In this document: positions 2,600 to 58,521 of the stretch, piece by piece
Numbering within the stretch: position 1 is the first letter of the stretch
Layout: every line of letters starts with the position of its first letter
NCBI GenBank assembly: GCA_021234155.1
Contig: JAJEKV010000025.1
Span: 14,880,867 to 14,944,866 of the forward strand
DNA: 64,000 nucleotides
Direction: 5' to 3'
Source of the DNA: Isoetes taiwanensis
Lineage: Eukaryota; Streptophyta; Lycopodiopsida; Isoetales; Isoetaceae
Made by a program: the position numbers and the translations under genes
Notes under the pieces: model-generated
The model's input: only the letters and a program-made list of their open reading frames with translations
What the model was told of the DNA's origin: nothing
The model's database searches: none

Positions 2600-5500
2600 T
2601 ATACCAATGTAACGATTGAAAATAGACACTATTTTTTTAGCTGTATTCCATCTCAACAAGCATGCTTTCCAGAATTATGGAGACAACCGTTCCATTTTCC
2701 ATGAGAAAGTCCCCATTGGTTTCTGACCTTTTGAACATCAACCTACAAATAAATGGAATCGACTAGTGATGAGTAAAGTTCCAAGTGCTAAAACTCAAAG
2801 GAAAAGCATATTTGCCACTAAAACACCTGTCATGCAGTAGCGACTCTAATCTAAACCTACCCCAATATTCTGGCTTTGGAATTACACGATCCCTGCAATA
2901 GAAATGAGAAATGCCTCAGCATGCTAGGAATGAACAGTAACAAAACATGTAAGCAATGATTGGTCAGAATGCCAAAACCATTGGCATATTTTGACATGAG
3001 ATCTGCATAAGTCTGATCCAGAACATGCGGTCCTTCAATTACAGAGCTCTGCACAATATCCAATTGGATATACATCACGATTTTTCACTAGTTGCACCAT
3101 GAAGAGCATGTCACAAGAAATTTGTTCCTCATTTTGCACTTCTATTAGAGATTATTGGTCAAAACCGCCACTAACACGTCATAAATGAAAAGCACCAGCT
3201 GCAAAGATAAAACAACATCATGACAAGTGAAGTTCATATCTGTAAAGCTCCAATTTGACTCGTCATAAAAAAAAGCACCAGCTACCTGTGAGCTGACTAA
3301 AGCTCCAATTTGACTTTCTATCGGGCGACTTTGAATATTGAATAGACTCCTCAAAAACCTTTGCCACAGACCCTTCAATGCGCACCTGCAAAATAAATAA
3401 ACACTTCGAATTTCAAGGTACATGCAGACTTGAAACTACAAGTGAAGTCCATAATTGACACTGGTGAGAAGAAAACATTGAATAAGCTTAACATACTTGA
3501 CGATGCAATTTCTCCCAGAAAAACACCAGCGCAGCACATGGATTAGCAATCCGTTCTTCTCCTTTTCAACTATTATAATTAGTATACCTGAACATTTAAG
3601 GTAAACAACAGTTTAAAGGGATAAATTTCATCACCATCATGTACAGATGGGGCTCTTACCACACAAATCCTCTTTCATCATAACCCTTAAGTAGCAGCAA
3701 CTGAGCAGATCTATAATAAGGAAAGGAAATCATTAAACCACTGGCATCTCAATTACAAATAGTTACCATATAAAGCATGGTATGCAGATATCCAAACCAT
3801 AAAAGACTTTTGACATACAGATGTCCTCCTTGGTCCGCCGTAGCAAGTTATCATTGCATTGGGTTCTGAAACACCAGCAGCAACGGCTTCTTCAAACCAC
3901 ACTCGAAACTGCCAAAGTTGAAATACATGTTTTGGTAGTCTAGGCAATAGTAATAACCCAATAGCTACTTACCTGCAACATTGGATCCTTTTCCACATGC
4001 CCCTCAAGCAAATATGCACCAACATAATTTTTCCTGAGAGCAGCAACATCAATGTCCGTGGGCTTTCTAATCCGTACACACTATGATGTACCCGGGTATT
4101 GAGATAGCTTCAAACTGAACTTTTCAACGATAGCAGGCGGCACAAACCTGCCTCCTAAAAAATGATGAGGATCTCTGAATGATTTTGCACATAGTTTTGG
4201 TGCAGTCAATGAAATCTAGCATTAACCATGCGGGACAGATGCATAGGAAAAATGGAGTTGAAAGTACAAGCACTAAATCAATATTGGCAATGTGTGGCAA
4301 CTCCTTGACTGATATAAAAGGGACTGATAAGCTGTTCAGCTGCCAAGAGATCATCTATTAAAATAAACGCTGAGCATATCTCATGATAACATCACATTGA
4401 CCAAACTTAAAACACAAACTTTGTCATGTACAAGTTTAAAGACATTAGAATGGCTGGTTTCTTGAGTGCAAATTTCGTGGACATAAACATAAAGTATTGA
4501 CTTTATCCAACTGTGTTGCATGTCTTCACATGCAGCAATTGTATTGTAAGTTATCAGCACACAAGGTTTTAAAGGCTGTTCATACTCGACCTCCTTGCTC
4601 AAGAAGGAATCGGAATCCAAATTTCATGGCCATGATCAAACTTACTGTCATCTAGCTCTTTCCTACGATTAAATAGTGTCATCGAACTGGTTGACCTCAG
4701 CAGAAATTATCAAGAAACAAAAGCAAGGCATCTCTTATATGCTTCATATAATAACAAATTATAAGTTTTAGGAAATTTCCACGACAAAGTAAATTATCCA
4801 ATTCAAATTAAATCCAGAGAAGGTGAAAATAAGGAGAACATTTTTATCCTTCCTCCCGTTTCGATTTCTATGTACATTCACTTGTGGGAACTTTCCTGCT
4901 ATATGCCAGTTCAGTGGATAGAGTAATACTAGGCAGTTGTAGCTATCTTTTGCAATTCAAACTCAAGGTGAAGACATAATGATATCTACTTTAAAGCCAT
5001 GAGAATTAAAAGACCTTCAATGGTTTATTCTGCTCGAAACATGGAATGTGCATTGAGAACCAAAATGAGAACTTACTTGTGTGACAAGGCCTGCATATGC
5101 ATGGCTTGTTTGGGGTAACATATGCATGGCTTGTAACCAAAATGATGAAGATGCCGAGCTGCAACCAATCCATCCCCGCCATTGTGTTCCAGGGACCACA
5201 TAGTACAAGGACACGTTTATATTCAGCTACAGGATACACCTGTGAAATGCCAAAGCGAGTTGGACACAAAATAAGATTGTAAAGGCAAGTGCCTACTGGA
5301 GACAAGGTACTATCAAGTGCTGAGCCGTGAAAGATAGAATAATTGAACGATATTTACATAGTTATAAGTATGTAATACCTCTGAAATAGCTGAAGCAACA
5401 CTCAAACCTGCAAGCTCCTGCTCAATAAATAGATAGAACATAAGTATGAGAATGAATGACAATAATGTTAAAGTTATTAAAAAGGAAGAAGAGCACCATC

Positions 5501-5606
5501 AGCTGATCGATGCTAAAACCCAATGGCCCCATAAGCATTTCATCAATAGAAACCGCAGCAGATTGTGTAATATAAGATACATCGTCGAAACTTTGTGAAG
5601 CATTCC
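2600..5606 (-). pseudogene. NAD(P)HX epimerase / pyridoxamine-5'-phosphate oxidase fusion, copy A (PPOX1-like)
   Basis: The exons read from high to low coordinates. E1 5497-5606 (SYITQSAAVSIDEMLMGPLG), E2 5379-5417 (ELAGLSVASAISE), E3 5077-5239 ([16 protein letters not shown]) and E4 4227-4339 (LNSLSVPFISVKELP) are YjeF_N epimerase. E6 3973 to about 4207 (PHHFLGGRFVPP) links to PNPO exons E7 3767-3908 (FRVWFEEAVAAGVSEPNAM), E8 3660-3700, E9 3497-3587, E10 3286-3385 (RPIESQIGALVSSQ), E11 2979-3048, E12 2827-2892 (PKPEYWGRFRLE) and E13 about 2640-2742. Most have GT/AG borders. The enzyme would repair NAD(P)HX and oxidise pyridoxamine/pyridoxine 5'-phosphate with FMN, in plastids. Damage: E5 is missing, E3 has a 2-base insertion inside the NNGGDG loop, E6 has an in-frame TAG near 4083, and E9 and E10 are frameshifted. 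Confidence 0.85.
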
Positions 5607-5913
5607 TGTGTTTCCAAGGAATTCGTCATATTCTAAATGCCACCAACCCTGTGTTACTTTCTGCTTCTGTTTCTGCGAGCATGTTAATGTGTTTGTGCAT
5701 CAACGGGCCGGATAGTTGGCTTTGGGATCGTGCCAACATCCGACGGGCAGCAGACAAATATCTGGGCTTTTTCCTAATTTAGATCTCGCCTTTTTCCCGA
5801 AAGCCAGGAATAGAACTGATATTTTAGAACACGGAAAGTGCAGAGTCAGACACAATTACAGAGGTATAAGAATGTCTGCATTTGCATTGTGTTGGCATTA
5901 CAGAATTCTGAGT
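5607..5913. promoter_or_regulatory. Short divergent intergenic region between epimerase/PNPO and kinase
   Basis: About 300 bases separate the first recognised epimerase exon (minus) from the likely kinase ATG (plus), and the same arrangement recurs at 24273-24579. A shared or bidirectional promoter is inferred from geometry only. I see no clear TATA box or named element. The kinase frame stays open upstream to 5716, so part of this interval could instead encode an N-terminal extension. Confidence 0.35.
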
Positions 5914-6885
5914 ATGGAGACGGAGACGCAGGAGACAGATGAAGAGCTTCTCAACTACACTTACTCTGCTTTATTTCCCAATCTTTTGGAGAGCTATGAT
6001 ATGCTTAAGGAAATCGGCGAGGGTGGCCAAGCTACGGTTTTCCTCTGCAGAAGTAAAAGAGGAGGTAAGAAAGAGTTTGCTTGCAAAATCATCTGGGTAG
6101 GAGACACAGAGCCGATCAAGGAAATGGAGATCATGCAGAAATTAGCCAGCAGCCCTGGCATAGTGCATATACACGAAGTAATCAAAGACGAGGGATTCTG
6201 GCACTTGATCATGGAATTGTGCGAATGTAGCTTGCTTGATGTAATCGTCAAGAAAGGCAGGCTATGCGAAAAGGAAGCGGCTCTTCTTACTCGAAATCTT
6301 GCTCTAGCTATACAGGATCTTCATCAAAAGGGTATCATCCACCGGGATCTGAAGCCAGGCAACGTTCTTGTGACCTCAGCAGCAAAGCCCTATGATGTTA
6401 GGGTTTCGGATTTCGGCATATCGGATCGTTTTTCAGGTTCTGCTCCCAGTTTTACATCCAGAGTCGGAACACCAAGATATTTCGCTCTAGAGGTTGTGCA
6501 GGGATATTATTCCACAGAGATAGACATATGGGATCTGGGTTTGATCCTGTATGAGGTGCTTACTGGGAATGATCACTTCTCAAGTCTAGAAACTGCGCAA
6601 ATTCACGAAGAACTGCTTCATGGCGAGGATTTGGCTGCCTCACACTTGCATTGGCCAGTTGGGTTGGTGTCAGAGGAAGCAAAGAGCCTTGTTTTGGCAA
6701 TGTTGCAGCCTGATCCAGAGGAAAGGATATCTGTGCAGCAAATTTTGGCACACCCCTGGGTTGCCAAATATTCTAGTACTAGTACAAGGGCGCCTCAGAG
6801 CTTAAAACGTAAGAGGCCATGCTTCAAATATGGTGTTCCTGCTAAGCTCATCAGAACAGTGAGGCCCTCTGAAATTGCCTGCTGA
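5914..6885 (+). CDS. Intronless serine/threonine protein kinase (CAMK-like), copy 1
   Basis: The product is 323 residues from ATG 5914; the frame is open from 5716 (389 residues). I prefer 5914 because the kinase domain begins 28 residues later and the upstream 66 codons look like leader. Numbered from 5716, it has the glycine loop GEGGQATV (101-108), ATP lysine K124 in FACKII, HRDLKPGN (209-216, catalytic D211), DFG (232-234) and DIWDLGLILYEVLTG. It ends with a basic KRKRP patch that may be a nuclear signal. The APE motif reads ALE (257-259) through a P-to-L change, which may weaken the activation segment. It resembles plant CDPK/PEPRK-type kinase domains, but no EF hands follow. It is the best-preserved host gene in the window; substrates are unknown. 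Confidence 0.88.
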   Translation: METETQETDEELLNYTYSALFPNLLESYDMLKEIGEGGQATVFLCRSKRGGKKEFACKIIWVGDTEPIKEMEIMQKLASSPGIVHIHEVIKDEGFWHLIMELCECSLLDVIVKKGRLCEKEAALLTRNLALAIQDLHQKGIIHRDLKPGNVLVTSAAKPYDVRVSDFGISDRFSGSAPSFTSRVGTPRYFALEVVQGYYSTEIDIWDLGLILYEVLTGNDHFSSLETAQIHEELLHGEDLAASHLHWPVGLVSEEAKSLVLAMLQPDPEERISVQQILAHPWVAKYSSTSTRAPQSLKRKRPCFKYGVPAKLIRTVRPSEIAC

Positions 6886-6970
6886 AAGGAATCAAAGGGC
6901 AACAAGGGACATTCTTCTCTACATTTATTTGCCACTCAAGAGACTTGGCATTAAACTAGATATCAGGTTA

Positions 6971-7130
6971 TGCCACCTTCGTGACATAGAGTATTATATT
7001 TTTTGAAGACAATTATTTGTAGAGGTTGGCTTCTTGACATATGCCACCTTCAATGATATTTTTTTTGAATACAATACAATTATTTATAGAGGTTGGCTTC
7101 TTGACAAACGCCACCTCCGTGACATATTTT
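6971..7130 (+). repeat. Tandem repeat of about 70 bp downstream of the kinase
   Basis: The phrase tatgccacctt(c) followed by an AT-rich stretch and gaggttggcttcttgac occurs two and a half times, at about 6971, 7038 and 7110. The same array lies at about 25637-25796 in the second kinase copy. It probably sits in the kinase 3' untranslated or flanking region. No function is evident. Confidence 0.75.
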
Positions 7131-7550
7131 TCCAAATTAATTGTTCGCTTTGCCGAGCTCTAGCCAATATGGATTTTGGTTGCTCTTTTTGTTTACACAT
7201 CTTCAAACTTTTCTTCCTTTTTTGCATTGTCTAACTCAAATTTTTGCTTTCTAGTATTTGCATCTTGTGATCTTTGATACTATAACAAGCTTTGTTTTAT
7301 GCTTTAGCATAGAATATTGTGGCTTCAGAGTCTCTTCTATTGGCAAGCACTGCCATGTTGCCATGTGCAGACACAATTTGTTATAATAGTTGGAAGATGG
7401 ACGATGTTCTTGAAGTTGGGGATTTTCGGACTTTTAAATGCTGTGGTATAGAAACATATTTGTCATTTTTATTGTAAGTGAGTGGACATAGAGTATAGTA
7501 GATCATTATGCAATTGTCAGAGTTGAGCACGTCTATAACAATGTGATGTT

Positions 7551-7893: not shown

Positions 7894-8606
7894 GGAATAT
7901 TACGTCTGTATAAATATGTGCCACGCCTCTATGCCTGATAAGAATTTCTGAATATGTACATCTAGGAAAGAACTATGATTGAAGTGTCCCAAGTGCTCAT
8001 GCCTCTGTCATGTATGAGATTGATAAAGCCAAATAGTAAGACAAATACATCATTTATGAAGACTAATGTACATAAGGAAGAGTGAGATTTCTACAGCTTC
8101 TTGTTCTTTGACTCTTGCTTATATGTGCATACCGTCATGCTTATTGCCAATGCCATAGCAATTGTGTAATGAAGCAATCAACCACATGAATGTTCAAAGC
8201 ACAAAAAGAACTATAAGACCATCTTCTAAGAAAATGGGAAACATCCTTACCTTTTCAAGCATTGGGGCCAAAGCAAGTAAACAAATTAAGTGAATAATCA
8301 TACGACAATCAATATTGCAGATCAAATGGAGCAAGGGCAAGTAATATGAGCGAAAAGACAAAAGGACCAACAACAATTGTGCCTATTATTGCAATCCAAG
8401 GAACAAATATTGCAAGAATGGTCTGTAAAATGCAAATAAAAAGAGGTAAGAATATGTATCTCAATAAATAGGCCACTGGCGCACACAATATTGAAACCAT
8501 GATAGTTTTTTTTCATGAAGCAGAAAAGAATGCACAAATTTATGGTATTGCCAATAACATGATAATAGTTAGTAAACATGCCTAGAGTAGGAAGGAAAGC
8601 GTGAGT
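7894..8606. other. Unassigned, one weak membrane-exon candidate
   Basis: No clear gene. On the minus strand, about 8305-8434 has an acceptor-like TTTTACAG followed by a 37-codon hydrophobic stretch (TILAIFVPWIAIIGTIVVGP...) ending in a stop. It reads like an exon of a multi-pass membrane protein, but I could not place it in a family and found no partner exon. Confidence 0.3.
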
Positions 8607-8734
8607 ATGGACTTCATAGTCGCACTACCTAGAACTGCTAGGCAACATACTCAGATTTTGGTAATAGTGGATCGGTTAACCAAGTATGCTAAGTTTATAG
8701 CATTGAAAGGGGAGGCTACGGGGCATGACGTAAT

Positions 8735-9331
8735 ATGCAAAACATATTTCCAACTTTTGGACTTCCCTTGTCCATTGTAAGTGATCGAGACACTAAGTTC
8801 ACGGGTCACTTCTGGAGGGACCTCATGAAAGGATTGAGGATCCGATTATACATGAGTAGTGGTAATCATCCACAAACGGATGGGCAAACTGAGCGCATAA
8901 ACATGATCTTGGAGGACATGTTGCGAAGTTTTGTCCATAAGAAGCAGTCTAGATGGGAAGATTATCTACCCTACCTAGAGTTTGCTTATAATAATAGCCA
9001 TCACACGGGAATTCGGATGACTCCCTTTGTGGCTATGATGGGCCGGAACCCAAGGGCTTATTCTGGGATGCATAAGTACCTTAGAACCGAAGTTGCAGTA
9101 CACATGCTGCATGATATGGATGCAATCTTGCGGCAGTGCAAGCAAGCATTGCGAAAAGCTCAAGATAGGCACGAAGCGCCCGCCAAATATAGCGAGATAT
9201 TTCTTATGCGGAAGGTGATTACGTGTTTTTTACTGGTCGCTTATCCTTCGGGCGCTAAGAATGAACACATTGCGCCTTTAACCAAAGGTCGAAAGTGCCT
9301 AAACTTACTCATGGTATGCCGGGCCTTTTAG
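8735..9331 (+). pseudogene. Ty3/gypsy integrase fragment
   Basis: One 198-codon frame contains VSDRDTKFTGHFW (second catalytic aspartate) and HPQTDGQTERINMILEDMLR (catalytic glutamate), then WEDYLPYLEFAYNNSHH. The first catalytic aspartate (IVDRLTKYAKF) lies upstream at about 8665-8700 in another frame, with the shift near 8735. All three DDE residues are thus present, but on broken frames. Codons after about residue 158 are out of frame with the family. Confidence 0.9.
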
Positions 9332-9652
9332 GATTACTAAAGGATCGGGGAAACAGCGTACGAGTTGAACTTACAACAGGAAGTAGGGATCCATCCTGTG
9401 TTTCATGTAAGTCAACTAAAGAGGGCTATACTGGATACCGCTAACGTGGTTAGTCCGCAAAGTATACCGATCGTCTTAAACTCCTCAGAACGCTTGAACG
9501 TCTTTTAGATAAAAGAGTTCGCAGCCGCCATAATAGGGATGTGGTAGAACATCCGTTCGGTGGTGAGGACCCGTCTCAGGATGCCACCGGGAGGCGGAGG
9601 AATTTGTGCAGCAGTTCCCTCATCTAAAGGATCAACCTTGAGGGCAAGGTCC

Positions 9653-9668
9653 AAAAGGAGGGGAGGAA
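9653..9668 (+). other. Polypurine tract
   Basis: Sixteen purines (aaaaggaggggaggaa) lie immediately before TGTTACAGTG, the position expected for second-strand priming next to a 3' LTR. Confidence 0.8.
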
Positions 9669-10740
9669 TGTTACAGTGTGCTCCCAAAGGGCATAGCCGA
9701 ATCGGCCCCTTGACGGACGCCCATAAGCACGGAGTACTATTGGTCGCGATTGACACGCGCCCAGATTCAATGGGCCGTGTTGACTGTAATCAGTCTACGG
9801 TGACGAGATGCGAAGTAAATGGAATTAATGGCTAGCGGCGGGTAATGGTCCGCTAGGGGGCGCTAATATTATTAATATTAGCGCGACAAGAGCTAGCAGA
9901 GATTGATCGGGTCAAGACCCGTAAACTTACATGGTTAACATCAGTTGTTAATGTTAATGTAAGGCCCTAGGGGCAAATGTATTTAAATGTAAGTTAAGCT
10001 ATGGTTTTAATATGTAGTATTAAAGTGACACATGGCTTACATTGGCTCGATGGGTCTTGTAGAGACTGTTATATCAGAAAACAGAATCGTGGAGAAGGCC
10101 CGGCTGTCAGATCTCGAACAGAAGCTCTAGTGCATGGATTTGGATCGAACAAGGGCCTGATCTGGCCGGATTCAAGCATGCAGAACTGTTGGTGAACTCA
10201 AAGATGAGTTCTATAAAGCCCAAAGGTCGAATTCAAGCAGCACAATTGAACCGACGTTTCTGCCTTAACCGGTTGCTGTAGAATTCATGAATCAGGCTAT
10301 AGGGTCGGAATTGGATTCCAAAACTAATAGTGAGGCTTTGAGGGCAGTCTGCTACTGCCAATAGCCGGATTAAATCAGACCCATAGGGTCGGGTTGCAGC
10401 CAAGAGCTGGGTAACTGACCACAGGAGCAGTTTGACTCTGCCAAAGGTCGATCTGGATAAAGCCCCTGGTAGGTGCTGACGTCAGAGGGATTTCTTGAAG
10501 AAATCTGGGCTTGTGTTGGTGTTTTCTTAGCAGCAAGCCGACAAGTCTAGCGCGGGGGATCCGAGATACAAGGAGTGGGTGGTAGCTAGACGACGTCAAC
10601 ACGCGGGCGGGGATTATTTCTAAGGGAAAAATTTCTGCCGTGTAATAGTACGACCTACCCCGGTTCTCAAATATTTTTAGACTGTACGCACACCCAGTAA
10701 AGGAATACTCAATTCTGTCATGTTCTAAATATTCCAAACA
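9669..10740 (+). repeat. Presumed 3' LTR of the truncated gypsy element
   Basis: Begins TGTTACAGTG right after the polypurine tract. The right end is placed at ...ttccaaaca (10740) because that is the last CA before composition changes. With no 5' LTR in the window the end cannot be confirmed. It contains a perfect 11-bp hairpin at 9860-9884. No coding sequence recognised. Confidence 0.6.
9860..9884. repeat. Perfect hairpin inside presumed LTR
   Basis: Arms GCGCTAATATT and AATATTAGCGC (11 bp each) around a 3-base loop. A stem of this kind in an LTR could mark transcript-end or packaging structure; role unknown. Confidence 0.85.
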
Positions 10741-23151: not shown

Positions 23152-24272
23152 ACCATGCGGGACAGATGCATAGGAAAAATGGAGTTGAAAGTACAAGCAG
23201 TAAATCAATATTGGCAAGCTCTTTCCCGTTTTAAAGCTCAAATTCCTGTTCATACTCGACCTCCTTGCTCAAGTAGGAATCGGAATCCAAATTTTATGGC
23301 CATGACCAAACTTACTGTCATCTAGCTCTTTCTTATGATTAGTGTCATCGAACTGGTTGACCTCAGCAGAAATGATCAGGTAACAAAAGCAAGGCATCTC
23401 TTATATACTTCATAAAATAACAAATTATAAGTTTTAGGAGATTTCCACGACAAAGTAAATAATTTTTGTTGCCAATTCAAATTAAATCCAGAGAAGGTGA
23501 AAAGAAGGAGAACATTTTTATCCTTCCTCCCGTTTCGATTTCTATGTACATTCACTTGTGGGAACTTTCCTGCTATATGCTGGATAAGGTAATACTAGGC
23601 AGTTGTAGCTATCTTTTGCACTTCAAAGTCAAGTTGAAGACATAATGATATCTACTTTAAAGCCATGAGAATTAAAAGACCTTCAATGGTTTATTCTGCT
23701 CGAAACATGGAATGTGCATTGAGAACCAAAATGAGAACTTACTTGTGTGACAAGGCCTGCATATGCATGGCTTGTTTGGGGTAACATATGCATGGCTTGT
23801 AACCAAAATGATGAAGATGCCGAGCTGCAACCAATCCATCCCCGCCATTGTGTTCCAGGGACCACATAGTACAAGGACACGTTTATATTCAGCTACAGGA
23901 TACACCTGTGAAATGCCAAAGCGAGTTGGACACAAAATAAGATTGTAAAGGCAAGTGCCTACTGGAGACAAGGTACTATCAAGTGCTGAGCCGTGAAAGA
24001 TAGAATAATTGAACGATATTTACATAGTTATAAGTATGTAATACCTCTGAAATAGCTGAAGCAACACTCAAACCTGCAAGCTCCTGCTCAATAAATAGAT
24101 AGAACATAAGTATGAGAATGAATGACAATAATGTTAAAGTTATTAAAAAGGAAGAAGAGCACCATCAGCTGATCGATGCTAAAACCCAATGGCCCCATAA
24201 GCATTTCATCAATAGAAACCGCAGCAGATTGTGTAATATAAGATACATCGTCGAAACTTTGTGAAGCATTCC
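23152..24272 (-). pseudogene. Epimerase/PNPO gene, copy D (5' exons)
   Basis: E1 begins at about 24272 and ends at 24163; E2 24045-24083; E3 23743-23905; a shortened intron; then an E4 second-half fragment (about 23152-23222). E1-E3 are essentially identical to copy A at offset 18666. That includes the 2-base insertion in the NNGGDG loop and the duplicated catatgcatggcttgt, so both defects predate the large duplication. No PNPO exons follow. Confidence 0.85.
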
Positions 24273-26317
24273 TGTGTTTCCAAGGAATTCGTCATATTCT
24301 AAATGCCACCAACCCTGTGTTACTTTCTGCTTCTGTTTCTGCGAGCATGTTAATGTGTTTGTGCATCAACGGGCCGGATAGTTGGCTTTGGGATCGTGCC
24401 AACATCCGACGGGCAGCAGACAAATATCTGGGCTTTTTCCTAATTTAGATCTCGCCTTTTTCCCGAAAGCCAGGAATAGAACTGATATTTTAGAACACGG
24501 AAAGTGCAGAGTCAGACACAATTACAGAGGTATAAGAATGTCTGCATTTGCATTGTGTTGGCATTACAGAATTCTGAGTATGGAGACGGAGACGCAGGAG
24601 ACAGATGAAGAGCTTCTCAACTACACTTACTCTGCTTTATTTCCCAATCTTTTGAGAGCTATGATATGCTTAAGGAAATCGGCGAGGGTGGCCAAGCTAC
24701 GGTTTTCCTCTGCAGAAGTAAAAAGAGGAGGTAAGAAAGAGTTTGCTTGCAAAATCATCTGGGTAGGAGACACAGAGCCGATCAAGGAAATGGAGATCAT
24801 GCAGAAATTAGCCAGCAGCCCTGGCATAGTGCATATACACGAAGTAATCAAAGACGAGGGATTCTGGCACTTGATCATGGAATTGTGCGAATGTAGCTTG
24901 CTTGATGTAATCGTCAAGAAAGGCAGGCTATGCGAAAAGGAAGCGGCTCTTCTTACTCGAAATCTTGCTCTAGCTATACAGGATCTTCATCAAAAGGGTA
25001 TCATCCACCGGGATCTGAAGCCAGGCAACGTTCTTGTGACCTCAGCAGCAAAGCCCTATGATGTTAGGGTTTCAGGATTTCGGCATATCGGATCGTTTTT
25101 CAGGTTCTGCTCCCAGTTTTACATCCAGAGTCGGAACACCAAGATATTTCGCCCAGAGGTTGTGCAGGGATATTATTCCACAGAGATAGACATATGGGAT
25201 CTGGGTTTGATCCTGTATGAGGTGCTTACTGGGAATGATCACTTCTCAAGTCTAGAAACTGCGCAAATTCACGAAGAACTGCTTCATGGCGAGGATTTGG
25301 CTGCCTCACACTTGCATTGGCCAGTTGGGTTGGTGTCAGAGGAAGCAAAGAGCCTTGTTTTGGCAATGTTGCAGCCTGATCCAGAGGAAAGGATATCTGT
25401 GCAGCAAATTTTGGCACACCCCTGGGTTGCCAAATATTCTAGTACTAGTACAAGGGCGCCTCAGAGCTTAAAACGTAAGAGGCCATGCTTCAAATATGGT
25501 GTTCCTGCTAAGCTCATCAGAACAGTGAGGCCCTCTGAAATTGCCTGCTGAAAGGAATCAAAGGGCAACAAGGGACATTCTTCTCTACATTTATTTGCCA
25601 CTCAAGAGACTTGGCATTAAACTAGATATCAGGTTATGCCACCTTCGTGACATAGAGTATTATATTTTTTGAAGACAATTATTTGTAGAGGTTGGCTTCT
25701 TGACATATGCCACCTTCAATGACATTTTTTTTGAATACAATACAATTATTTATAGAGGTTGGCTTCTTGACAAACGCCACCTCCGTGACATATTTTTCCA
25801 AATTAATTGTTCGCTTTGCCGAGCTCTAGCCAATATGGATTTTGGTTGCTCTTTTTGTTTACACATCTTCAAACTTTTCTTCCTTTTTTGCATTGTCTAA
25901 CTCAAATTTTTGCTTTCTAGTATTTGCATCTTGTGATCTTTGATACTATAACAAGCTTTGTTTTATGCTTTAGCATAGAATATTGTGGCTTCAGAGTCTC
26001 TTCTATTGGCAAGCAATTGCCATGTTGCCATGTGCGCACACAATTTGTTATAATAGTTGGAAGATGGACGATGTTCTTGAAGTTGGGGATTTTCGGACTT
26101 TTAAATGCTGTGGTATAGAAACATATTTGTCATTTTTATTGTAAGTGAGTGGACATAGAGTATAGTAGATCATTATGCAATTGTCAGAGTTGAGCACGTC
26201 TATAACAATGTGATGTTAGGCATTGTTATGAAGAAAGAGCTCAATACCTTATACGGTGGTGTGGCCATGTGACGTTGGGGTATTTTTGATACAAATATTT
26301 ACGTTTGGATGTTGGAA
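23627..26317. repeat. Segmental duplication, copy 2
   Basis: Partner of 4960-7893, lacking the 239-bp element. The left edge is within epimerase intron sequence. The right edge follows gatgttgga at about 26317, after which a direct-repeat unit begins. Differences are few and are mostly single-base indels. Confidence 0.95.
24580..25551 (+). pseudogene. Protein kinase copy 2, glycine loop and DFG segment out of frame
   Basis: Nearly identical to 5914-6885 and still one open frame (open from 24382), but with two compensated frameshift pairs. A lost G near 24652 and a gained A near 24722 replace the glycine-loop segment with unrelated residues (LRAMICLRKSARVAKLRFSS). An extra A near 25074 and a lost base near 25153 replace DFG through the APE region (VSGFRHIGSF...). 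The catalytic lysine (FACKII) and HRDLKPGN remain. As written it would not bind ATP and Mg normally. The changes sit at homopolymers or CAG-like sites, so sequencing error is a live alternative. Confidence 0.8.
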
Positions 26318-52480: not shown

Positions 52481-52765
52481 ACGAAAATGATGGCGTATCT
52501 TCTATTCTCGGCTCTATTAGCTTGGATTTTAAATCCATTGCCTTAAATCTCAGTCATTGAGATGTCTTAAGATGCTACTTGAGGTTGATCACAGTGCGGA
52601 GTCCATCTCCTATCAAATAAAGTTTTTTGTCTTGCATGTACCTAGGATATTGTGAGTATCGGGGAAAAATTAAGCATACTATATATTTTTTCATAAAAGA
52701 TGGTTTGGCTATTTTTTTTAAATTTATAGTGTTTTGTGATATACATTTGGCTAAAGTTATTATTA

Positions 52766-55630
52766 GGGTACCTTCGCACTTTCGTAGTTAAGTTAGGATT
52801 AGTTAAGATTTTAAGCTTGAATTTGCCTTCCACCACCACTAGTTAGGTTAGTTTTGCATTAATCTTTTATTTAGCATTAGTTAAGTTTTAAATCTAAAAG
52901 TATTAACTTAGAATTGGATTCACACTAGTTTCCATTAAGTTAGTAAATTAAACCAAAGTTAACCCAAAATTAAAATTACCGAAAATTAAAGTGACCGAAG
53001 GTCACTTTATTTTAACAGAGCGAGTTATTGGCTTTGAAATAGTGAGACCGAATAGCCTTCCGAAGCGAGTCGACCCTCAAAATCTTGGAGCTCAGTCGAG
53101 GTGTCGAAGCGGTGTAGTCACAGTTCTTTAGAGCATGTTAACTTTGTCAAAACTTATTGCTTTAGAAGCTGGTAGAAGCGGCATAATATCAAGCTTAGGG
53201 GATCTCATGCCTCCATGTTTTTCTACGCATTGGTTGCCTTGACATTCTTCCAATATCTCAATCAAGAAAATTTGCTTCTGAAAAACGAAGGTGATTGTCT
53301 TCACGAAGGGAACTTGATTGGATACCCGGCTTTCCTGAGATCGCTATCTATTGGGAGAAATTGAGTAGTTTTGCATATTATTCTTTGGTAGCGAGGGCGT
53401 TTTACCCGCAGTCGAGCGGGGATCGGCTTCTAAGTCTCAAAAGTCTCACCTTTAGAGCCACTTTCATTCTTTCCATGCACGAAGTGCCGAGGCTTGAAGC
53501 CAAATATAGATTTATAAAGGGCTCTTGGCATAGCAGAATTTTGAAACTATGGGGCAATCTGAACTTACTCCGGCTTGAAGTCCTTGAGGATTTGGAAATT
53601 CAGGACACATCTTAAGTCTCAATATCAATCCCATCACCTTTGCTTTTGGAGCTTTAAATTTCGGGATCTTCAAAGGAGATCATTTCCTCGAATTCCACCG
53701 GGAAGGGCGGTGTCATTGCAAATAAAATAGCAACTTCGAGAACATTGTGTGGATAATAATGAGTAGTATAAAAACCAATCTATCATAGGGGCTGTGTGAA
53801 AGCCTGAGAGGTCTAGCGAGAGAGTTCAAGGCGGATGATGATCATAGGGTCTATGAGTTCAAAGAGATGAAGAAAAACAAATTACGCTCAACCCCGCGAA
53901 ACAATGCATTGAATGTTTACTATGCTTTCATGTCCCTTGAAGCATTTGCTTCTTAAATTTGTTGATAATATTTACATTAAGCTTTGGAGTAGACCACGGG
54001 TGTTGGATCAGATCTTTTAGGCGTCAAATTTGCTGAAGCATTTGATCGCTCACGCCTTAAGTGGCAAAAGGTTTGTTTCTCCACATCCTGCATTATGGAA
54101 ACTAAAAAAGAATGTTTAGCATAGGCTCACGGAGAGTTGAAGAAGGCCATCAAAGTGGTAGATGAATTTGCATCTTACGTCATCTGAGAAGGGAAAAATT
54201 GGCGAGGTTAAAGGGCAATAAATTCTGAGGAAAACCATGACTTATTGTCAGTTGTGGCTGGAGGATACCTCGACAGAAGTTCTTGAGAGATAATAATCCT
54301 TGACTTTATTCTTCTTTGGAAGAGATACAAACTCTGTCGGCTTGGCTTGGTTCTTTTGGCACCTATCTTTTAATCCCACCAGAATTGGGAAGGTGATTTA
54401 CAAGAGATAAGCGGTGTAAGCCACATGGATTCAAATCTTGGCCATTCTCAAAGGAGCAGATTTAGCTTTGAAGGTGAAGGAAATGCATTATATGAATCAA
54501 TGAAGTTATATCCTGTTGTTCCAAATGACACCAGGTTGCGCACAAGATGATATTTGGGAAGATGGAACCGTAATTAGGAAGGGTATGAGAGTGATTTATA
54601 GTCCATATTCAATGGGAAGATCTAAGAAAATATAGGAGAGGATTGCTTGGAATATAAGCCTTGAGGAGAGATGGATCGGAGATGGACAATTTGTGCAATG
54701 ATCCTTACAAATATCTATTCCAACAGGTCCAAAATTTGTTTAGGGAAGGAGATGGCCACTATCTACGGATGAAGTATGTTGCAACGTATATATTAAGTTA
54801 TGTCGATGGTAGAAGCGTTAAACCACAATGTCTTGTCACGGAGTTCATAGTATGAAGATGGATTACCGATGAATATCGAGGCATAAAATATCCAAAGGGC
54901 TGATCTCTATGCCTATACATCTGGCGATTGATTACGCATTATTTCTTATACTTTGTTTATATAGTACTCTAGGATAGAAGAGGATTCCAATATAAGTGTA
55001 GAGGCTATATGTGTGATTAGCGTGTAATTTCTTTGTAACAAGCGTGATGCATCTAAGCGAAGCCTATTGCATTTTTTTGAAAATGCCTTTTTTAATACAT
55101 CTATGTCATGAAGCCTACATCACATTGGTGGAAATTTACCAAAAATATACTAAGTTCAAAGTTGTTCACCTAGATATAAATATTACTTGATTGAGAGGGT
55201 ACCTAATTGGTTAGGATATTGTTGGCTAAATGTCAGTTCTTGTTGTCGTAGGCCCACCAGCGGACTACAATATTTATCTTCTATTTTATCAAAATAGAAG
55301 ACCACAAAGAAACGATTTAGCAGGCATGTCACCGACACTTGGCGGATTGAGATTAAGTTAGACTAACTTGTAGAGCATATATCTGAAACATTAGCATTAA
55401 GTTAGCACTAACTAACCAAGACATGTCTTGAACACATTTTATTTTGTCGTTAAGTTAAAAAAATAACCTAAGCATTTCTTACGATAGAAGAGTTTAACTG
55501 GTTTGGTTATCTGCCAAAGTCTTAGCGAGGAAAGTTAACTTGAATCTTGGTCTTGACGTAAAGGTCATTGTATTTAGCGGCCCGTTAAAAAAATTAACTA
55601 ATCCTAACTTAATGGTGGATTGAAGGTACC
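52766..55630. mobile_element. TIR-bounded element carrying a P450 gene (MULE-like candidate)
   Basis: The left end GGGTACCTTCGC...AGTTAAGTTAGGATTAGTTAA (52766-52806) is the inverted counterpart of the right end TTAACTAATCCTAACTTAA...GAAGGTACC (about 55593-55630). Flanks TTATTATTA and TTATCATTA match 8 of 9, as for the 9-bp target sites of Mutator-like elements. Both subterminal zones are full of TTAAGTTAG/CTAACTTAA words. No transposase is recognised; the interior is a decayed host P450. AT-rich flanks could match by chance. Confidence 0.65.
53210..54855 (+). pseudogene. Cytochrome P450, CYP86 clan, decayed nearly full length
   Basis: The pieces run in family order across shifting frames: a hydrophobic start and FPEIAIYWEKL near 53320; the GIFKGDHF zone near 53670; SFGVD.GC and KFAEAFDRSRLKWQ near 53980-54065; the I-helix GRDTNSVGLAWFFWHLSFNP near 54327-54387; K-helix ESMKLYPVVPNDTR near 54490 (ExxR has become ExxK); DDIWEDGTVIRKGMRVIYSP with YSMGRSKKI; a PERW equivalent; and the heme region with ICLGKEMA near 54737-54757. 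Intact relatives omega-hydroxylate fatty acids for cutin, suberin or sporopollenin. Many stops. Heme cysteine present but frameshifted from its upstream FxxG. Confidence 0.85.
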
Positions 55631-55639
55631 TTATCATTA

Positions 55640-58521
55640 CATTTATATATATTTAGACTTATGGCGAAACTTTTTAGAATTAAGGAGTACTAAAACTTTC
55701 ACTTTGCTATTTTTTTCTAATTAAAACTAAAATATAAATTCTATAACTTTAGATATATTTACAATTACAAATAATAATCAACAATCCCGAGGACCATACA
55801 ATAATATTAAAAGCTTTTAGCGACTCACAACATAGCTTATAGAATCCATAGTCGAACTACATTTCTATTTTAATGGCGTCTTCTAGATATGATGCTCAAA
55901 TTGCACTTGTCTCTAACCCTTAAGGGAGAAGATATTATGCAACCAACTTGCTTGGAGCATCTAGGGGATCATTAGCCCATCTTATAATTCCTTTTTAGAT
56001 ACATATATATGAAGGTATATGTATTAGAAATTCATAGTCGAGAAAATCTACTAACACTAATGATCTTTGGTGAAGTAGGGATGTGTAAAATCTATAATAA
56101 AATTCATTTTATTTGGCTGTAATGATTTAATATATAATTATTGTAATACAAAGAAGGCTAATCCTTCTTTCTTTAAGGAGAAGGGGAAATGGTTGGCTAA
56201 TCTTAAAAAATAATGAATTACTTGTTTTTAACTATGACCATTTTATTTTTTTTTTTTTCAAAATCCCCCTTCATAAAATTGACACTTAAAAATCATCTTG
56301 ACCCCCTAAAAAATTGCCATTTGGCTATTAATAGCCACTGTCTCTGCAGCTGGAGGTATGCATCTAGGATCTATCAAATCACAGTTTATTCATCCCTTTT
56401 AATCATGGCTCCATTAGTTTTACTTATTTTATGTAAGGTCACAAACGCTACTTGACATCGAGGATATGACATAATAACAAGCTGACATAGCAAAGCAAAG
56501 GTTCTTTGATTCGATGATTTTCTTGCCAATAGAAAACAAGAAGTTTTTGCTTGTAGAATGTCTATTTATTTGTAGAATGTAGACAAAGGGCATGCAACAT
56601 TTCTTACTTGATTCATTTTGTACTATGAATAAAATGCAAATACTATCATTTCATAATTTCTCTTATTGATGGGAGGCTAATATGTACTTGCGATCATATA
56701 CACTTGGCTCAATTTTTTTCTTTTCGCCGCTTTTAACTATGGTCCCCGGAAGCATGATTACTTAAATTAGTCGTCTTTTCTTTTTCAGCACACCACGGTG
56801 GAAAGGGTTCAAATTATCTTGAAGTAGAAGTGGATATCACGATGTGTGCGAAGTTGACTTCTTGTCTCCCAAATTGTTATTGTCATGTGCAGTGTGGAGA
56901 AGATGAATTAGTTATGGAACATGAAGACATATTGGGTGTCCTATATTTTAACATCGACTTAGCAAATATCTTACATGTTCTAATATAATACCACCTAATT
57001 ATCTTCACTCTACCCGCAAAATTAAAGGTCCTTTAAGCATGTATTAAAACCAATGCGACAATTGATGTTTCTCATCTGGTCTAATGCCACTAATTGATGT
57101 GGTCGCCGGGTCCCCCTAATGCCATTGAATGTTTGTTCCATGAATCATCTAATAAATCATTGTCTGATCCTTTTTATTACTTTCAATATCACCGGACTTA
57201 ACAACCTTGCCCTATCAATCTTCATGAACAACTCCAATCCTTCCATGATTCAGTCAATATGCAACTGTTAATACAACATAATTTTCATCTTATCTATAAA
57301 TTTGAGATGGCTTATACATCAACTCTCACATTCATCAGCATTTATCATTTGGGGTGTATTATTGTTTAGGGTGTCTCACAATTTTTGTGACCATTAAGAT
57401 GTTGTATCATAGAATATTCCATGGCACTCCTAAATCAAGATGGGGTCAAACAGCCCAAGTTGACCGATTTGCAAGGAGAAGCATTTAAAAGCATAAATCT
57501 AATGGTTATCATTCTCACATCAAGCATTACAACATAGTAAGTCTTTGAACTTCTCCGCGACAAACCATTCTTTGCTTCTATTTCTTGAGGAGGAATTGAA
57601 CCTTAAAAGCCGAGAACAAAAAGAATTATATGGACAATAGGCCCTAAACAAACACATAGAAATAGAAGAACGGTCATTGCCGAACGCAAATCCCACCCTT
57701 CTCCCTTTGCTTTCGTGACAAATGCTTGAATTTAACAAGGTTAGGCCCTAACAAGATTTACTATTACGTGAAAACCTCATTTCTTACTCAAACAACTGAG
57801 AGCAGTATGTAGACTTCTCAAGGGGTACAAAACCAACAAAGAGATTTGGGAACTATTAAAGACCCACTATCCATGTCTCAATAAAGGCTCCAATCGTTTA
57901 TGGTTCAATGGAGGTTAATTAATGGATCCTTGACTAACGTTTAGATGTCCACATAGTGCATGTATAGATGTAGATGCATGTATAGGTGTTTTTATTCAAG
58001 GCTTCTCATGTTTTCTTTGGCCTTTATTGACCATAATTGATGTAGATCATGGGGCACTATACACCCTTTGTACATTGGGGCAGAAATCCTAAGCCAAGTT
58101 GGTGATTATGGAAGCTTACAGTTCTATTAAAATATAAAATAGTATACGACATACTTAAATAGGAAAACTAAATGCATTATTAGATAAATGATCCTCGAGT
58201 TCTTTGGATTATGTTCTTCATGATGGGAATCTGATGAGGCTTATGAACATATGCTCTATAGTTTTTAGATTACCAAAATATTTTCTATTTGTGTGTAAGC
58301 CCGAAATTGTTTTGTTTAATATTTGGTTAAAAGTGATTTAATGCGACATAACTAGCAATTGTTAAACCCAAGAACTAAACATGCTTTTACGAGTTTGTTC
58401 ATACTTTAGCGGTAGTATTTATTCTTTCTATAACATTCTATTGCATCCATAACATATATAGTCATAATCTTGATCCACTTGCCCAACAATGCGACATCGG
58501 CCAAACACCATTCTAGTTTTT
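55640..58521. other. 2.9 kb without a recognised gene
   Basis: AT-rich with a second copy of the 52250 repeat at about 56600-56780. Phrases near 57830-57900 (KEIWELLKTHYP) faintly resemble Copia gag but are too short to call. A minus frame at 57520-57738 has no motif. Confidence 0.4.

What the first reader, a model, noticed from the sequence alone, without database searches (positions are those of the whole stretch)
52766..55630. Decayed CYP86-clan P450 enclosed by inverted GGTACC ends and TTAAGTTAG-rich subterminal zones
A nearly full-length P450 lies between inverted termini with an 8-of-9 target-site-like match, and no transposase is visible. This is the structure of a gene-capturing (Pack-MULE-like) element, but with a far larger capture than usual. 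The TTAAGTTAG words repeated on both sides suggest transposase-binding arrays. The family appears undescribed to me.
Basis: partly seen in the sequence, partly recalled or inferred. Interest (0 to 1): 0.75.

Follow-up and report, generated by a model that had tools for sequence, protein, structure and literature searches.

The report
Gene-capturing PIF/Harbinger jumping element

Summary
The element is real (52766-55630), one of a multi-copy family in this 1.66-Gb genome: 249 termini within 2 mismatches, 0 in the reversed control. It is not Pack-MULE-like. In 19 of 19 copies with both ends located, the flanks share exactly TTA or TAA. Unoccupied relatives of the window's target lack the second TTA, so the "8-of-9" match is native sequence. 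Same-ended relatives L017 and L019 (6.2-6.3 kb) hold the transposase region; L019's frames hit DDE_Tnp_4 and Myb/SANT. The family is PIF/Harbinger. The cargo joins MYND/MSS51-like, ARM-like and P450 fragments; the P450 part is the C-terminal ~64% plus ~245 bp, not nearly full length. Four other copies share cargo and junction: one capture, then transposition. One (L004) later gained 993 bp of a DCP5/LSM14-like gene internally, replacing about 4 bp and keeping apparent intron sequence: probably repair synthesis from genomic DNA. PIF gene capture is known (grapevine Pifvine-3, maize Pack-PIF). Verdict: new member of a known kind, with a useful before/after capture pair.

The parts
52766..55630 (+). 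non-autonomous PIF/Harbinger-type element, 2865 bp, right terminus lacks its outermost C
   Evidence: ends shared with a multi-copy family
52763..52765 (+). [quoted passage not shown]
   Evidence: unoccupied relatives lack one TTA
55631..55633 (+). [quoted passage not shown]
52766..53036 (+). left terminal inverted repeat and conserved subterminal region
   Evidence: matches members with other cargo, e.g. L005 and L022, up to 53036
55351..55630 (+). right conserved subterminal region and terminal inverted repeat
   Evidence: matches members with other cargo, e.g. L005, L006, L022, L028
52788..52796 (+). subterminal word TTAAGTTAG
52935..52943 (+). subterminal word TTAAGTTAG
55353..55361 (+). 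subterminal word TTAAGTTAG
55397..55405 (+). subterminal word TTAAGTTAG
55604..55612 (-). subterminal word TTAAGTTAG (reverse strand)
53240..53381 (+). captured fragment of a MYND-finger/MSS51_C gene
   Evidence: 75% to L033; 88% in sister copy L001; the L033 frame hits PF20179 and PF01753 above cut-off
53425..53954 (+). captured fragments of a gene related to a 605-aa open frame with weak ARM-repeat similarity, in three blocks against L031
   Evidence: no Pfam model reached its cut-off
53949..55143 (+). captured, decayed C-terminal part of a P450 (CYP94-like, name recalled) plus sequence beyond its stop codon
   Evidence: 81% to L013; 83% to L014 over its first 774 aligned columns; frame broken
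9450..9452 (+). unoccupied target in the window, homologous to the insertion site of the transposase-bearing relative L017, with one TTA

Best explanation
This is a non-autonomous member of a PIF/Harbinger DNA transposon family. Two proteins encoded by same-ended relatives (Myb/SANT ORF1 and DDE transposase) probably recognise its ends and subterminal TTAAGTTAG arrays and moved it by cut-and-paste into TTA/TAA sites. An ancestral element acquired fragments of three host genes (MYND/MSS51-like, ARM-like, P450), probably by repair synthesis from genomic DNA. The composite was then multiplied by transposition, and the window copy has since decayed. Shown by sequence: family, ends, 3-bp TSD, empty sites, transposase in same-ended relatives, chimeric cargo with one shared junction in five copies, later internal gain in L004. 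Inferred: mobilisation in trans by those proteins, binding to the words, and the repair mechanism of capture.
For: TSD exactly TTA/TAA in 19 of 19 copies tested. Empty sites: 34 of 40 scored rows (of 747 candidates) run across the window junction; 4 of those 34 were aligned and all 4 lack the second TTA. 4 of the 40 rows run across the L002 junction (one read). The L017 site is unoccupied in the window itself. L017 (6293 bp) and L019 (6225 bp) have both ends and the transposase region; L019 frames hit DDE_Tnp_4 at 1.8e-18 and Myb_DNA-bind_4 at 8.5e-10, L018 the same families, L012 DDE_Tnp_4; L017's frames were read but not scanned. Same ARM|P450 junction in the window copy, L001, L002, L003, L004. 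L004 insert: donor L030 at 97% and 95%, sequence after exon 1 kept, donor-internal jump at a shared GCC, about 4 bp of target replaced. Words are more conserved than their surroundings: 0.959 vs 0.881 left, 0.979 vs 0.922 right, 19 rows.
Against: No transposition, expression or binding was observed. The conservation contrast in the words is modest and the rows are related. Transposase-bearing copies were not tested for an intact product across introns. An extended 9-bp target preference, described for plant PIF elements (PMC2836001, passages), is not evident: only the TTA is invariant in 19 sites. Shared letters at the L004 edges are 1 bp each, which chance gives easily, and its insertion point coincides with a place where L031 has about 185 bp that the elements and L021 lack. 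The nearest P450 relative outside the elements, L014, is itself broken, so the donor is a lineage, not a proven locus.
Confidence: 0.93

Rival explanations
1. A Mutator-like Pack-MULE with 9-bp target-site duplications.
For: 8 of 9 flanking letters match in the window; gene cargo without a transposase.
Against: No copy of 19 has an exact duplication longer than 3 bp; 9-bp identities in the other 18 range from 1 to 7. Empty sites lack only one TTA. Open frames scanned in same-ended relatives hit DDE_Tnp_4, and none hit a MULE transposase model.
Confidence: 0.01
2. A CACTA-type element: 3-bp duplication plus subterminal arrays of short words resembling transposase-binding arrays.
For: 3-bp TSD and subterminal word arrays.
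Against: Termini begin GGGTACC, not CACTA/CACTG (definition recalled); TSD is TTA/TAA in 19 of 19; transposase is DDE_Tnp_4.
Confidence: 0.02
3. The cargo was captured from spliced mRNA (cDNA) and not from genomic DNA.
For: For the ARM-like and DCP5-like pieces, blocks that are adjacent in the element are separated in the genome.
Against: The DCP5-like piece keeps sequence before and after the first LSM14 exon (read here as 5' and intron sequence; no gene model was available), and the block it lacks holds further coding-like sequence and has no GT..AG edges. The gaps against L031 lie inside one open reading frame and have no GT..AG edges.
Confidence: 0.04
4. Capture by fusion of two neighbouring elements (the Pack-TYPE model) rather than internal repair synthesis.
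For: Model proposed for plant Pack-TYPE elements, with examples in a maize Pack-PIF cluster (PMC8903248, passages).
Against: The L004 gain is internal, adds no extra termini, replaces about 4 bp, and its donor lies on another contig. The founding MYND/ARM/P450 capture is not resolved by this.
Confidence: 0.2

Closest known systems
Pifvine-3 (Harbinger-3_VV), PIF family of grapevine (PMC2528002)
   Same: PIF superfamily, mostly TAA/TTA 3-bp TSDs, ORF1 plus transposase, complete copies of 5.8-6.7 kb, long 5' region (up to 3.5 kb) that in most cases matches other genome sequence including exons and introns, shared in some cases by several copies (passages)
Pack-PIF elements of maize (PMC8903248)
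   Same: non-autonomous PIF elements with captured gene fragments; TTA/TAA TSDs in 81.2% of the maize and 52.4% of the rice PIF elements found there (passages)
   Different: the Pack elements of the maize cluster #18 shown there average 535 bp with 163-bp and 58-bp gene matches; cargo-bearing copies here are 2.9-4.5 kb and the window copy has three gene sources
Ping/Pong/mPing (PMC2836001)
   Same: two-protein system (Myb-like ORF1 plus TPase), 3-bp TSD, short elements mobilised in trans (passages)
   Different: mPing has no gene cargo (recalled); precise excision was not tested here
Pack-MULE
   Same: gene-fragment cargo between inverted ends
   Different: TSD length and transposase differ

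Membership tests
PIF/Harbinger superfamily | 3-bp TSD, TTA or TAA | tested here: met
   19 of 19 copies, 11 TTA and 8 TAA; empty sites
PIF/Harbinger superfamily | DDE_Tnp_4 transposase in same-ended elements | tested here: met
   L019 1.8e-18, L018 1.8e-18, L012 7.7e-15; both ends located in L017 and L019
PIF/Harbinger superfamily | second ORF with Myb/SANT-like domain | tested here: met
   PF13837 in L018 and L019
PIF/Harbinger superfamily | extended (9-bp) target preference in plants | tested here: inconclusive
   19 sites oriented by TTA: only the TTA is invariant, flanks are A+T-rich without a clear 9-bp consensus
PIF/Harbinger superfamily | precise excision and two-protein requirement | not testable with these tools
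   needs a transposition assay
Pack-TYPE (Pack-PIF) | non-autonomous, TIR-bounded, carrying fragments of identifiable host genes | tested here: met
   P450 and MSS51_C/MYND relatives found outside elements, the ARM-like one named only weakly
Pack-MULE / Mutator-like | TSD of about 9 bp (recalled: 8-11 bp) | tested here: not met
   0 of 19 copies have an exact duplication longer than 3 bp
Pack-MULE / Mutator-like | MULE transposase in same-ended relatives | tested here: not met
   in the frames scanned from L012, L018 and L019, DDE_Tnp_4 was found and no MULE model
CACTA | CACTA/CACTG termini (recalled) | tested here: not met
   termini GGGTACC at the left of 19 of 19 copies

The most novel reading that the evidence does not exclude
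A PIF/Harbinger family that repeatedly assembles multi-gene chimeras by inserting genomic gene pieces inside already mobile elements through repair synthesis, one step at a time, without fusing neighbouring elements; L004 against L001/L002/L003/window is a polarised before/after pair for one step. Transposase-bearing members may carry host-gene chimeras themselves: L018 has a sulphate-transporter/GH81 open frame lying between family sequence and its own transposase, though its left end was not located.
Probability: 0.45. Interest if true: 0.55.

Novelty: new member of a known kind. Interest (0 to 1): 0.34.

Why it matters
It corrects the superfamily and so predicts which proteins move the element. 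It also gives a family in which capture can be dissected: five copies share one multi-gene cargo and one of them gained a further gene piece, with a donor relative, the target and unaltered sisters in one assembly. A 2026 review says an undiscovered mechanism may bring fragments of unlinked genes into DNA transposons (PMC13317346, passages); this pair bears on that question for PIF elements.

Tried and rejected
Considered and dropped: Pack-MULE with a 9-bp TSD; CACTA; mRNA-derived cargo, because the pattern of adjacent-in-element, split-in-genome blocks first looked like spliced introns but the edges are not GT..AG and apparent intron sequence is kept; independent captures of the P450, rejected by the shared junction.

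Not settled: the donor of the P450 part. L014 is nearer than L013 to L001, L002 and L004 (K2P 0.023-0.029 against 0.035-0.038) and to the window copy (0.133 against 0.163), but L003 is nearer to L013 (0.081 against 0.092); fewer sites are compared for L014. The 8-row tree of this region has one well supported inner branch of five, L013+L015 (99/99).

Led nowhere: a literature search for the terminus letters returned 112 papers; the 10 listed are unrelated by title. Pfam named no family above cut-off for the frames scanned from L005, L006, L007, L022, L025 and L026. Donors of the PPR (L028), DUF2921 (L027) and sulphate-transporter/GH81 (L018) pieces were not sought.

Rows left out: the TSD count uses 19 elements (the window copy, L001-L010, L017, L019, L022, L023, L025-L028). 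Not counted: L011 (ends oriented oddly), L012 (right end broken, next to another copy's right end), L016 (fetched piece stops inside the right end), L018 (left end not found), L024 and L029 (right end not in the piece). The elements were chosen from the best matches, not at random. Genome-search counts are lower bounds; one search lists only the first places.

Full report
What was checked. The element at 52766-55630 has inverted ends. Its left 135 bp has 40 scored matches in the 1.66-Gb assembly, the window itself among them, of 114 candidates; its right 161 bp has 40, itself among them, of 95. A 33-letter terminus pattern with up to 2 mismatches has 249 matches and the reversed control has none. 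The element is a member of a repeat family.

True boundaries and duplication. Alignment of copies shows termini GGGTACCTTCGCAC. In 19 of 19 copies with both ends located the flanks share exactly three bases, TTA (11) or TAA (8), and never more. In the window the flanks read TTATTATTA and TTATCATTA. When the flanks are joined with one TTA, 34 of 40 scored genome rows (747 candidates) run straight across the window's junction; two rows are the window's own flanks and four are unoccupied sites of the sister copy L002. Four of the 34 were aligned (L035, L036, L037, L039): none has a gap or extra letters at the junction, L035 and L036 read GTTATTATTA|TCATTAC exactly, and L037 and L039 each differ by one letter in that stretch. 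The 8-of-9 match is thus target sequence and the duplication is TTA. The site of the transposase-bearing relative L017 is found unoccupied inside this very window, at 9450-9452.

Superfamily. L017 and L019 are 6.2-6.3 kb, have both ends, and contain the transposase region. Frames of L019, L018 and L012 match DDE_Tnp_4; L018 and L019 also match Myb/SANT models. L017's frames were read but not scanned. A 3-bp TTA/TAA duplication, two genes (ORF1 with a Myb-like domain, and TPase) are the marks given for PIF/Harbinger (PMC2836001 and PMC2528002, passages); that DDE_Tnp_4 is the PIF/Harbinger catalytic domain is recalled. Besides L012, eight places carry most of the transposase region at 84-86% identity. 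The 9-bp extended target preference described for plant PIF elements is not evident in 19 sites.

Cargo. The P450 part matches about residues 188-526 of the 526-residue open frame at L013 and about 245 bp beyond its stop. It is preceded by fragments of a MYND/MSS51_C gene and of a relative of a 605-residue open frame with only weak ARM similarity. The name CYP94 is recalled; Pfam says P450 only. Four more elements hold the same cargo (C1076, C1093, C1034, C133), and all five copies show the same ARM|P450 junction. Distances among L001, L002 and L004 are 0.01-0.02 substitutions per site; L003 is at 0.05-0.08 from L001; the window copy is at 0.13 in the P450 part and 0.22 elsewhere from L001, so it is the most diverged of the five. 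The nearest P450 relative outside elements is L014 for four of the five copies and L013 for L003; the tree supports only L013+L015.

A later gain. L004 differs by a 993-bp insert. Its donor relative, L030 on another contig, is an LSM14/DCP5-like gene (PF12701 for its first exon; DCP5 is recalled). The insert keeps sequence before and after that exon, jumps over 560 bp of L030 at a shared GCC, replaces about 4 bp of the element, and shares 1 bp at each edge, read by eye. The uninterrupted state is present in L001, L002, L003 and the window copy and in the outside relative L021, so L004 is derived; against this, L031 has about 185 bp extra at the same place. The search for the insert returned L004 itself, the donor gene and one weaker place on contig C1054, and no other element (3 candidates, all scored). 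This fits template-switching repair of the kind inferred for animal Pack-TIRs, where junction homologies have a median of 2 bp (PMC8277862, passages). The mechanism is inferred.

Other members. L028 carries PPR repeats and L027 a DUF2921 part within their ends. L018 has a sulphate-transporter/GH81 frame between a stretch shared with L012, L017 and L019 and its own transposase, but its left end was not found, so that the frame lies in one element is likely and not shown. Donors of these pieces were not sought.

Subterminal words. With up to 1 mismatch, TTAAGTTAG and its complement number 8 in the ends and 1 in the middle of the window copy, 12 and 1 in L001, 10 and 2 in L019, 12 and 0 in L028 (four of 19 copies counted). 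Consensus columns inside the words are 0.959 (left) and 0.979 (right) conserved, against 0.881 and 0.922 outside (19 related rows). Facing pairs occur in the right end. Binding by the Myb/SANT protein is a reasonable guess and untested.

What is known. Gene capture by PIF elements was reported in grapevine, with cargo in a long 5' region (PMC2528002, passages), and Pack-PIFs in maize (PMC8903248, passages). The finding is therefore a new member of a known kind. Literature searches made: (open-licence PubMed Central papers only).

Noticed in passing
window 4576-7550 and 23246-26217: A 3-kb stretch with a protein kinase open frame is present twice at 98% identity; the second frame matches a shorter part of the kinase model.
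   Followed up: partly
window 8594-9818: Sequence homologous to the host sequence of the L017 insertion, with an integrase-like open frame at 8729-9328 (retrotransposon by recalled motifs; no Pfam hit at 0.001).
   Followed up: partly
window 52616-52765 and 55631-55783: The element sits in a dispersed repeat: 34 other scored places in the assembly are alike across the insertion point, two of them about 93 kb and 63 kb upstream on the same contig.
   Followed up: partly
L012 1-800: Right ends of two family copies meet tail to tail, one with about its last 65 bp missing.
   Followed up: no
window 53037-53239 and 55144-55350: Two inner stretches of the element without a well identified donor; part of the first aligns in sister copy L001 to a short match at L034.
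   Followed up: no
window 52766-55630: Divergence of the window copy from L001 is patchy along the element (K2P 0.065 to 0.322 in 200-column blocks), lower in parts of the P450 region though its frame is broken; cause unknown.
   Followed up: partly
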